A DNA stretch of 64,000 nucleotides, taken from Ilyonectria destructans. Lineage: Eukaryota; Ascomycota; Sordariomycetes; Hypocreales; Nectriaceae. The DNA lies in assembly GCA_020740775.1 (NCBI GenBank), contig JAHEWK010000003.1:2914001-2978000 (forward strand). The letters run 5' to 3'. The stretch's first letter is position 1. Each line of letters opens with the position of its first letter. Below the pieces are notes generated by a model. It was not told the origin of the DNA. It saw only the letters and a program-made list of their open reading frames with translations, and made no database searches. This document shows positions 56,088-57,325 of this stretch, in pieces. The translations under genes and the position numbers were made by a program.

Positions 56088-56211
56088 GGTCACGGTGGGG
56101 ATCGAACCCACAATCTCCTGATTCGTAGTCAGACGCCTTGCTGTAGTGATTGTTAGTTATTGCACTGAGATGATGAATGCTGAAGTTGCTTACCCATTGG
56201 GCCACGCGACC
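56088..56211 (-). tRNA. tRNA-Arg(ACG), copy 1, D-loop intron
   Basis: The gene is 124 bp. The acceptor halves GGTCGCG and CGTGACC pair, the anticodon loop is CTACGAA (ACG), and the T-loop is TTCGATC. A 53-nt insert (56193..56141) interrupts the D-loop after AATGG. It begins GTAAGC, has ACTAAC (branch-site-like) near its end and finishes ACAG. Without it the tRNA is 71 nt with D-loop AATGGCA. A T5 run at 56078..56074 is the likely Pol III terminator. Confidence 0.9.
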
Positions 56212-56288
56212 TTGTTGATGGACGACGGCCTCGACAAGTCAACTTACATCGTCAGCAGTCCCTGTTGTGAGGAATGGCAAAAATAAGA

Positions 56289-56413
56289 GGTCACGGTGGG
56301 GATCGAACCCACAATCTCCTGATTCGTAGTCAGACGCCTTGCTGTATTGTTGTTAGCTATGGACCTCGGTCGTGATATGTCGTGGTGATGCTTACCCATT
56401 GGGCCACGCGACC
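56289..56413 (-). tRNA. tRNA-Arg(ACG), copy 2, D-loop intron
   Basis: The gene is 125 bp with the same tRNA body as copy 1. The insert is 54 nt (56395..56342), starts GTAAGC, contains GCTAAC near its end and finishes ACAG. Its middle differs almost completely from copy 1. The T5 terminator is at 56283..56279. Confidence 0.9.
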
Positions 56414-56494
56414 GTGGTATTTGATGGACAACCGGCTGGGAAACTCAACTTACATCGTGAGGCTTCACTGGTATAGACAAGAGCAAAAAGAAAA

Positions 56495-56620
56495 GGTCAC
56501 GGTGGGGATCGAACCCACAATCTCCTGATTCGTAGTCAGACGCCTTGCTGAAGTGGTTGTTAGTTGAGTGTTCGATGGAAGGTGATTGAGGATGTTGCTT
56601 ACCCATTGGGCCACGCGACC
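56495..56620 (-). tRNA. tRNA-Arg(ACG), copy 3, D-loop intron
   Basis: The gene is 126 bp with the same tRNA body. The insert is 55 nt (56602..56548), starts GTAAGC, contains ACTAAC and finishes TTCAG. T-runs at 56494..56491 and 56489..56485 are likely terminators. Confidence 0.9.
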
Positions 56621-56687
56621 TATCATTGGTTGGACGATGGCGTCGAAATTTCATTCTGTATTGTGAGGCGACAGGGCAACCGAAATG

Positions 56688-56737
56688 GAGAAAAAAGAGA
56701 CACCACAGTGGAGATCCCACAACATCTTGGTGAAGCA
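56688..56737 (-). repeat. Spacer repeat A, possible decayed tRNA 3' part
   Basis: Between copies 3 and 4, AGAGACACCACAGTGG followed by AGATCCCACAA resembles a damaged version of the 3' half of the tRNA (AGAGGTCACGGTGG, then GATCGAACCCACAA). A near copy lies at 56934-56982. It accounts for the two longer array steps. Confidence 0.45.
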
Positions 56738-56745
56738 AAAAGAGA

Positions 56746-56869
56746 GGTCACGGTGGGGATCGAACCCACAATCTCCTGATTCGTAGTCAGACGCCTTGCT
56801 GTATTGTTTATTAGTCAAGTGTGATGGTAGGTAGTTGAAGACGTTACTTACCCATTGGGCCACGCGACC
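56746..56869 (-). tRNA. tRNA-Arg(ACG), copy 4, D-loop intron
   Basis: The gene is 124 bp with the same tRNA body. The insert is 53 nt (56851..56799), starts with the consensus GTAAGT, contains the variant branch-like GACTAAT and finishes ACAG. The T5 terminator is at 56741..56737. Confidence 0.9.
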
Positions 56870-56933
56870 ATGTCATTGGTTGGACGTTGGCGTCGAATTT
56901 TCATGTTATGTTGTGAGACCTGCATGTGGGTTG

Positions 56934-56982
56934 AAGAAAAAAGAGACACCACAGTGGACATCCCACAAACTCTGGATAGAGC
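56934..56982 (-). repeat. Spacer repeat B, copy of spacer repeat A
   Basis: Between copies 4 and 5, the AGAGACACCACAGTGGA segment and ATCCCACAAA match spacer repeat A. The pair shows that a unit with this spacer was duplicated. Confidence 0.5.
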
Positions 56983-56991
56983 AAAAAGAGA

Positions 56992-57115
56992 GGTCACGGT
57001 GGGGCTCGAACCCACGATCTCCTGATTCGTAGTCAGACGCCTTGCTGAATTGATTGTTAGTTATTGCTCTGAGATGTTGAAGAGTGAATTTGCTTACCCA
57101 TTGGGCCACGCGACC
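56992..57115 (-). tRNA. tRNA-Arg(ACG), copy 5, D-loop intron
   Basis: The gene is 124 bp. The T-arm differs slightly from copies 1-4 (CGTGGGTTCGAGCCCCAC). The insert is 53 nt (57097..57045), starts GTAAGC, contains ACTAAC and finishes TTCAG; it is the closest relative of the copy 1 insert. The T5 terminator is at 56987..56983. Confidence 0.9.
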
Positions 57116-57198
57116 GTGTTGTTCTGATGACGAGTTCGCTCGATTTTGCAGTCCATATTGTCAGAGTCAAGCAACCGGCGGAAGAGGCAAAAAGATAA

Positions 57199-57325
57199 GG
57201 TCACGGTGGGGCTCGAACCCACGATCTCCTGATTCGTAGTCAGACGCCTTGCTAGATTGATTGTTAGTTACTGAGTTAAACTCTAGTAGTTGGATGGTGA
57301 TTCTTACCCATTGGGCCACGCGACC
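57199..57325 (-). tRNA. tRNA-Arg(ACG), copy 6, D-loop intron
   Basis: The gene is 127 bp and shares the T-arm variant of copy 5. The insert is the longest, 56 nt (57307..57252), starts GTAAGA, contains ACTAAC and finishes TCTAG. Its longest T run is three, too short to stop Pol III. The T5 terminator is at 57193..57189. Confidence 0.9.

What the first reader, a model, noticed from the sequence alone, without database searches (positions are those of the whole stretch)
56088..57325. Spliceosomal-type introns in the D-loop of six tRNA-Arg(ACG) genes
All six genes carry a 53-56 nt insert directly after D-loop residues G18-G19. Each insert begins GTAAG, contains CTAAC (CTAAT in copy 4) within about 17 nt of its end and finishes TAG or CAG, the same signals used by mRNA introns in this window. 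Gene lengths are 124, 125, 126, 124, 124 and 127 bp, and GT-AG removal gives exactly 71 nt each time, with D-loop AATGGCA and complete pairing in the acceptor, anticodon and T arms. Canonical nuclear tRNA introns lie next to the anticodon and are cut by the tRNA endonuclease, which measures from the tRNA body and would not be expected to cut here. mRNA-type introns in a Pol III transcript are known for U6 snRNA in some yeasts; I know of no case in a tRNA D-loop. If real, the spliceosome would be needed to make a tRNA that reads CGU, CGC and CGA codons.
Basis: partly seen in the sequence, partly recalled or inferred. Interest (0 to 1): 0.96.

Follow-up and report, generated by a model that had tools for sequence, protein, structure and literature searches.

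The report
Spliceosomal introns inside nuclear tRNA genes
In a fungus of the Fusarium family, six transfer-RNA genes in this window and at least twelve more elsewhere in its genome are interrupted by short inserts bearing the marks of messenger-RNA introns, so the spliceosome likely helps to make these tRNAs, a task otherwise given to a dedicated tRNA-cutting enzyme.

Summary
Two intron-free tRNA-Arg(ACG) genes lie 72-74 kb away; both equal the spliced product of two copies letter for letter and differ from the other four at two positions. So the spliceosome is not the only route to this tRNA, but 6 of the 8 genes found need the insert removed. The trait is wider than reported: four of five tRNA-Asn(GTT) genes found, six tRNA-Phe(GAA) and two tRNA-Pro(CGG) genes have the same kind of D-loop insert. 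All 18 have GTAAG or GTATG, CTAAY with its A 11-13 nt before the end, AG, and length 53-56. The Pro genes also carry an ordinary-looking 27-nt anticodon-loop intron, so they would need both splicing systems. One U6 snRNA gene of this genome has a matching intron. The genome is Nectriaceae, near Dactylonectria. No RNA data were available; splicing is inferred, and a bulge-helix-bulge test was inconclusive. Ten literature searches listed no precedent for nuclear tRNA.

The parts
57199..57325 (-). tRNA-Arg(ACG) gene 1: exon 1 57308-57325, GT-AG insert 57252-57307 (56 nt), exon 2 57199-57251
57252..57307 (-). predicted spliceosomal intron of gene 1 (GTAAG, CTAAC, TAG; branch A 12 nt before end)
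56992..57115 (-). tRNA-Arg(ACG) gene 2: exon 1 57098-57115, insert 57045-57097 (53 nt), exon 2 56992-57044
57045..57097 (-). predicted spliceosomal intron of gene 2 (GTAAG, CTAAC, CAG; 12 nt)
56746..56869 (-). tRNA-Arg(ACG) gene 3: exon 1 56852-56869, insert 56799-56851 (53 nt), exon 2 56746-56798
56799..56851 (-). predicted spliceosomal intron of gene 3 (GTAAG, CTAAT, CAG; 12 nt)
56495..56620 (-). tRNA-Arg(ACG) gene 4: exon 1 56603-56620, insert 56548-56602 (55 nt), exon 2 56495-56547
56548..56602 (-). predicted spliceosomal intron of gene 4 (GTAAG, CTAAC, CAG; 12 nt)
56289..56413 (-). tRNA-Arg(ACG) gene 5: exon 1 56396-56413, insert 56342-56395 (54 nt), exon 2 56289-56341
56342..56395 (-). 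predicted spliceosomal intron of gene 5 (GTAAG, CTAAC, CAG; 11 nt)
56088..56211 (-). tRNA-Arg(ACG) gene 6: exon 1 56194-56211, insert 56141-56193 (53 nt), exon 2 56088-56140
56141..56193 (-). predicted spliceosomal intron of gene 6 (GTAAG, CTAAC, CAG; 12 nt)

Best explanation
Each of the six tRNA-Arg(ACG) genes carries a 53-56 nt GT-AG insert in its D-loop that is likely a U2-type spliceosomal intron, predicted to be cut out of the Pol III precursor by the spliceosome to leave an intact tRNA-Arg. The insert sits directly behind the A box, so both internal promoter boxes stay whole; a T-run follows each gene. Inferred steps: Pol III transcribes the gene, U1 and U2 bind GTAAG and CTAAC, two transesterifications join G19 to C20, and the end-trimmed body takes the tRNA fold. 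The same inferred route would serve tRNA-Asn, -Phe and -Pro copies of this genome; the Pro precursors would in addition need the ordinary tRNA endonuclease and ligase. Shown: the sequence anatomy, the intron-free twins, the recurrence in four tRNA families. Not shown: transcription, splicing, lariats.
For: 18 of 18 inserts: GTAAG or GTATG start, CTAAY with its A 11-13 nt from the end, AG end, 53-56 nt. Intron-free twins fix the junction: the Arg twins equal the spliced product of 2 of 6 copies and differ at 2 positions, away from the junction, from the other 4; the Asn twin equals 3 of 4 (the fourth has an extra 11-nt anticodon-loop insert); the Phe twin differs from the six Phe copies at three or four T-arm/acceptor positions and, in one copy, at one D-loop position, but agrees at the junction. 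Intron interiors have diverged, some pairs down to the shuffled level, while exons stay 97-100% alike within Arg and Phe, which gene conversion of whole units would not give. In Arg, signal columns are invariant, most others not. ARAGORN names the right tRNA in 17 of 18 once the insert is taken out. A U6 gene of the same genome has a 66-nt intron GTAAGC..TACTAAC..CAG, branch A 11 nt from the end. A T-run of 4 or more starts 0-24 nt downstream in 18 of 18; shuffled flanks give 7.9 of 18 on average, at most 14. RNAalifold predicts no shared fold in the Arg introns.
Against: No RNA evidence. Intron-free Arg, Asn and Phe genes exist, so the interrupted copies could be dispensable. 4 of 18 end in AAG, a weaker acceptor. 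Four Phe copies can form a 4-bp exon 1-intron helix in bulge-helix-bulge register. One Asn copy (L064) has an extra 11-nt insert and may be damaged. ARAGORN tolerates D-loop shifts, so it does not pin the junction. The A-box plus GTAAG/GTATG patterns that led to Phe and Pro are not enriched as such over their backward controls (90 against 138, 68 against 123, 110 against 103); only the trial splicing separates the tRNA genes. I have no relatives' genomes to test conservation.
Confidence: 0.85

Rival explanations
1. The inserts are ectopic tRNA introns cut by the tRNA endonuclease at a bulge-helix-bulge motif in the D-arm, as in the red alga Cyanidioschyzon merolae, and joined by tRNA ligase.
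For: D-loop introns of this kind are reported for C. merolae (passages of PMC3978253). In strict register the possible central helix has 4 of 4 pairs (G-U counted) in 4 of 6 Phe copies and 3 of 4 in the other two Phe and both Pro copies.
Against: In strict register the same helix has 1-3 of 4 pairs in the six Arg and four Asn copies, and the Arg introns show no common predicted fold. It would not explain GTAAG/GTATG, CTAAY and AG at fixed spacing in four families. My test does not pick out this genome's ordinary anticodon-loop introns either (five scored, 0-3 of 4 depending on register), so it is inconclusive.
Confidence: 0.06
2. The interrupted genes are a decayed or silent set; the cell uses the intron-free copies only.
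For: Intron-free Arg (2), Asn (1) and Phe (1) genes exist. L064 has an extra insert in the anticodon loop.
Against: The tRNA parts are intact enough to be called in 17 of 18 while inserts and flanks have diverged; splice signals are kept; T-runs follow all 18.
Confidence: 0.05
3. The introns are spliced by the spliceosome, but from a Pol II read-through or long non-coding transcript spanning the array, from which tRNAs are then trimmed.
For: Array of six on one strand; spliceosomal splicing is normally tied to Pol II (established knowledge).
Against: T-runs end each unit; the Asn copies lie 2 kb or more apart, and the Phe and Pro copies are spread over several contigs, only the two Phe on C3 being close neighbours; the U6 gene of this genome has such an intron, and U6 is a Pol III gene (established knowledge).
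Confidence: 0.04

Closest known systems
Spliceosomal introns in fungal U6 snRNA genes
   Same: Pol III gene, GT-AG intron with CTAAC branch site; this genome has one too
   Different: U6 is a part of the spliceosome itself; here the hosts are tRNAs with an 18-21 nt first exon
Spliceosomal introns in fungal U3 snoRNA genes (PMC5832005, section 3.2 read)
   Same: Non-coding RNA host; donors mostly GTRWGT, branch site RCTRAY, acceptor YAG; copies with and without introns side by side in eight genomes
   Different: Host is a snoRNA; average length 92 nt against 53-56 here
Canonical nuclear tRNA introns (endonuclease type, position 37/38)
   Same: Interrupt nuclear tRNA genes; present in this genome, even in the same Pro genes
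   Different: Anticodon-loop position, cut by tRNA endonuclease and joined by ligase; the 27-nt Pro introns have no GT-AG ends
D-loop introns of Cyanidioschyzon merolae tRNAs (passages of PMC3978253)
   Same: Intron in the D-loop of a nuclear tRNA
   Different: Bulge-helix-bulge recognised by the endonuclease, in an alga with few spliceosomal introns
Spliceosomal introns in nuclear rDNA of ascomycetes (recalled; one title seen in the reference list of PMC11782384)
   Same: mRNA-type intron in a non-Pol II structural RNA
   Different: Pol I rRNA host

Membership tests
U2-type spliceosomal intron | 5' splice site GTRWG | tested here: met
   18 of 18 (13 GTAAG, 5 GTATG); Phe, Pro and the first Asn copy were found by searching for GTAAG or GTATG, so this feature is partly selected for
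U2-type spliceosomal intron | Branch site CTRAY near the 3' end | tested here: met
   CTAAY in 18 of 18, A at 11-13 nt, purine before it in 15 of 18; not part of the A-box patterns that found Phe and Pro
U2-type spliceosomal intron | 3' splice site YAG | tested here: met
   AG 18 of 18; YAG 14 of 18, AAG 4 of 18. Trial splicing tried AG ends only; twins fix the end for Arg, Asn and Phe, not for Pro
U2-type spliceosomal intron | Exact removal restores the host RNA | tested here: met
   Intron-free twins for Arg, Asn, Phe; no twin known for Pro, whose junction rests on a recalled D-loop sequence and on ARAGORN
U2-type spliceosomal intron | Excision as a lariat, dependent on the spliceosome | not testable with these tools
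   no RNA data
Canonical eukaryotic tRNA intron | Position 37/38 | tested here: not met
   all 18 lie in the D-loop
Bulge-helix-bulge (archaeal or C. merolae type) tRNA intron | 4-bp helix between two 3-nt bulges at the cut sites | tested here: inconclusive
   exon 1-intron topology, strict register: 4 of 4 pairs in 4 of 18 (all Phe), 1-3 of 4 in the other 14; five ordinary introns of this genome score 0-3
Functional Pol III tRNA gene | A box, B box, T-run terminator, tRNA fold | tested here: met
   A box whole before the insert (by eye); T-run of 4+ in 18 of 18; right tRNA called in 17 of 18 after removal of the insert. Transcription itself not tested
Introner (mobile intron family) | Many similar intron copies at unrelated sites | tested here: not met
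   The Arg array as query finds no intron relative elsewhere, but only the best candidates are scored; between-family similarity mean z -0.2 to 0.9, single pairs up to 4.0. Asn, Phe and Pro introns were not used as genome queries

The most novel reading that the evidence does not exclude
This fungus makes a substantial share of at least four tRNA families through the spliceosome, and its tRNA-Pro(CGG) precursors pass through both of the cell's splicing systems: spliceosome for the D-loop intron, endonuclease and ligase for the anticodon intron. That is a further class of nuclear tRNA intron and ties the decoding of Arg, Asn, Phe and Pro codons to spliceosome activity.
Probability: 0.8. Interest if true: 0.95.

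Novelty: new variant of a known kind. Interest (0 to 1): 0.9.

Why it matters
A 2026 review still describes tRNA splicing as independent of the spliceosome (passages of PMC13149111). If these inserts are spliced as predicted, that rule has an exception. Gene finders handle such genes badly: the default ARAGORN scan of the window finds none, Rfam gives one marginal and misplaced hit, and ARAGORN with introns allowed leaves 15 of 18 precursors uncalled, reads two as tRNA-Val and one as tRNA-Arg with a 52-nt intron. The case gives a natural test of how the spliceosome works on a short, folded Pol III transcript with an 18-21 nt first exon, and makes intron gain in highly constrained genes directly testable, since intron-bearing and intron-free twins sit in one genome.

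Tried and rejected
Introner origin: the whole Arg array as a DNA query gave only the array and three pieces of the two intron-free tRNAs (one being exon 1 with 11 bases upstream); no spreading family seen. Conserved intron structure: none predicted in the Arg introns; the six Arg precursors fold no better than shuffles (z -1.15 to 0.49). Bulge-helix-bulge test: I first tested one topology only, then both; it does not discriminate. Of the seven control inserts listed there, five ordinary introns and the 11-nt Asn insert were scored, the Ile one was not. ARAGORN as proof of the junction: rejected, since deletions shifted by several bases also give the right tRNA. Six-copy repeat at C73:2403012-2404954 (A-box-like plus GTAAG) and other A-box plus GTAAG/GTATG places: of 95 distinct places tested, 12 gave a tRNA (4 Asn, 6 Phe, 2 Pro) and 83 none, 16 of the 95 with under 200 nt of sequence. 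One search (CTAAY-AG-B box) gave 58 places against 36 in the control; by eye 10 are D-loop inserts (6 Arg, 4 Asn). Matches elsewhere: none in viral contigs (Arg pattern) nor in prokaryote genomes (Phe pattern), collections that hold no fungi by design; the plasmid search gave 13 records with 27-35% of the query covered. Not searched: donors other than GTAAG and GTATG; 10 of 110 places were not listed; of the listed places I fetched the first 30 and a choice made by eye of the rest. So 18 is a lower bound, and the number of intron-free Phe and Pro genes is not known (one search scored 63 of 2006 candidates).

Full report
WHAT IS THERE. The window is part of contig C23 of a 71.67 Mb genome in 74 contigs. 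An ALG1 exon in the window has its best named relatives in Dactylonectria (89% and 88%) and Neonectria (86%), and a 97% match without a name; Dactylonectria is Nectriaceae, so the organism is very probably a Nectriaceae fungus. On the minus strand at 56088-57325 lie six tRNA-Arg(ACG) genes, each with an insert of 53-56 nt directly behind G18-G19; exon 1 is 18 nt and exon 2 is 53 nt in all six. All six inserts start GTAAG and end YAG; five have CTAAC and one CTAAT, with the A 11 or 12 nt from the end. The junction could slide by one G without changing the product.

INTRON-FREE TWINS. A search of the genome with the gene, with the intron-free form and with a 25-base exon pattern allowing two mismatches gives the same eight tRNA-Arg(ACG) genes: the six here and two without insert at C23:2896950-2897021 and C23:2897752-2897823. 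The twins are identical to the spliced product of genes 57199-57325 and 56992-57115 and differ from the other four at positions 47 and 58 of the 71. This fixes the junction.

THE SAME IN OTHER tRNAs. A pattern GTAAG-YAG-B box gave 14 places, six of them these genes and one a tRNA-Asn(GTT) gene with a D-loop insert (backward control 14). A DNA search with the intron-free tRNA-Asn gives five genes, all on C2: one intact and four with GGCT|GTAAG...CTAAC...AG|AGCGCG. Patterns joining an A box to GTAAG gave 90 and 68 places (controls 138 and 123) and to GTATG 110 (control 103), so the patterns alone prove nothing. Trial splicing followed by ARAGORN singled out six tRNA-Phe(GAA) genes (C8:1149668, reckoned from its A-box hit; C3:970852 and 971287; C12:4317456; C34:1447546; C67:2080966) and two tRNA-Pro(CGG) genes (C74:1427179, C23:2908545; first noticed by eye). 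Of 95 distinct places tested, 12 gave a tRNA, all Asn, Phe or Pro; 83 gave none. An intron-free Phe gene exists at C12:2346992. The insert follows G19 in Arg and lies one or two bases further on in the others (numbering by eye). Because the A-box patterns allow only 0-4 bases between A box and donor, they cannot show that introns are absent elsewhere in tRNAs; the location-free patterns showed me no GT-AG insert at another place, but reach only from the D-arm to the anticodon stem.

SHARED ANATOMY. All 18 inserts: length 53-56; GTAAG 13, GTATG 5; CTAAY 18 (CTAAC 17); branch A to end 11-13; CAG 12, TAG 2, AAG 4; a purine before CTAAY in 15. Fungal U3 introns, for comparison, have GTRWGT donors in 88 of 136 canonical cases, an RCTRAC branch site in 129 of 138, nearly all YAG, and branch-to-acceptor distances in fungi run from 6 to 36 nt (PMC5832005, section 3.2). 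Within families the insert interiors average 56-66% identity against 46-51% for shuffled ones, while exons average 93.5-99.1% (the Asn mean is lowered by the 11-nt insert of one copy). In the Arg introns all 11 signal columns are invariant against 7 of 45 others. Between families similarity is slight (mean z -0.2 to 0.9, single pairs up to 4.0; within families mean 1.8 to 3.8). I read this as selection on the splice signals and the tRNA parts with drift between, and as old or separate gains in the four families; a common origin is not excluded.

POL III SETTING. The A box is complete before the insert; the B box is untouched; a T-run of four or more starts 0-24 nt behind all 18 genes (shuffled flanks reach 7.9 of 18 on average and 14 at most in 1000 rounds). 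One U6 gene of the genome (C1:6743874-6744043) carries a 66-nt intron, GTAAGC...TACTAAC...CAG with the A 11 nt from its end, and a B-box-like GGGTTCGAACCC inside it; two other U6-like genes lack it. U6 introns in fungi are known (titles of Tani 1989 and Canzler 2016 seen in the reference list of PMC5832005; the papers themselves not read). So in this genome the spliceosome very probably already acts on a Pol III transcript. That makes splicing of pre-tRNA plausible, not proven.

TWO SPLICING SYSTEMS IN ONE tRNA. Both Pro genes have, besides the D-loop insert, a 27-nt insert in the anticodon loop that ARAGORN reads as an intron. It lacks GT-AG ends. If both predictions hold, one pre-tRNA meets spliceosome and tRNA endonuclease. 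One Asn copy (L064) has an 11-nt insert near 37/38 as well; whether that is a small normal intron or damage is open, and ARAGORN does not name that copy Asn.

RIVALS. Endonuclease cutting at a bulge-helix-bulge is the serious one. In strict register the needed exon 1-intron helix has 4 of 4 pairs (G-U counted) in four Phe copies, 3 of 4 in both Pro copies, and 1-3 of 4 in the other 12; five of this genome's ordinary anticodon-loop introns score 0-3 of 4 on the same test, so it decides nothing. What speaks against it is that it gives no reason for donor, branch site and acceptor motifs at fixed spacing in four families. Silent genes: unlikely given intact tRNA parts between diverged inserts and flanks, but only RNA can settle it. 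Nothing here shows transcription.

LITERATURE. Ten full-text searches of the open PMC library listed no paper whose title or printed abstract start reports spliceosomal introns in nuclear tRNA genes; two searches listed 20 of 41 and 15 of 67 papers, and subscription papers and preprints are not held. [quoted passage not shown]

VERDICT. In seven long reading frames of the window CGT, CGC and CGA make up 181 of 235 Arg codons, so the Arg tRNA concerned would be a major one.

Noticed in passing
L059 (G000:C1:6743874-6744043, minus strand): U6 snRNA gene with a 66-nt GT-AG intron that contains a B-box-like GGGTTCGAACCC; two other U6-like genes (C15:490901, C2:321379) lack the intron, are alike over their 101 bases and have a different 5' end.
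   Followed up: partly
L135, L136 (C74:1427179-1427329, C23:2908545-2908695): tRNA-Pro(CGG) genes with a D-loop GT-AG insert plus a 27-nt anticodon-loop intron: predicted need for two splicing systems in one tRNA.
   Followed up: partly
L064 (C2:1402660 region): tRNA-Asn copy with an additional 11-nt insert near position 37/38: tiny normal intron or damage.
   Followed up: partly
G000:C7, C34, C11, C74, C2 (rows with CTAACATTTCGCG): Twelve rows of a tRNA-like sequence that resembles Glu(CTC) (by eye, recalled) with an anticodon-loop intron, seven of them on C7:595027-620667.
   Followed up: no
G000:C73:2403012-2404954 (L115): Six clustered copies of an A-box-like sequence followed by GTAAGTGAG; no tRNA results from trial splicing; nature unknown.
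   Followed up: partly
L037 (G000:C31, 298,608 bases): AT-rich, organelle-like tRNA genes on a 299-kb contig: possibly a very large mitochondrial genome.
   Followed up: no
L019, L094, L137-L140: All seven tRNA-Phe genes seen have a G-A or G-G mismatch at acceptor pair 5-68 (by eye), the intron-free one included.
   Followed up: no
window 56700-56722 and 56946-56968: Spacers of the array share the stretch ACACCACAGTGGANATCCCACAA, a trace of tandem duplication.
   Followed up: partly
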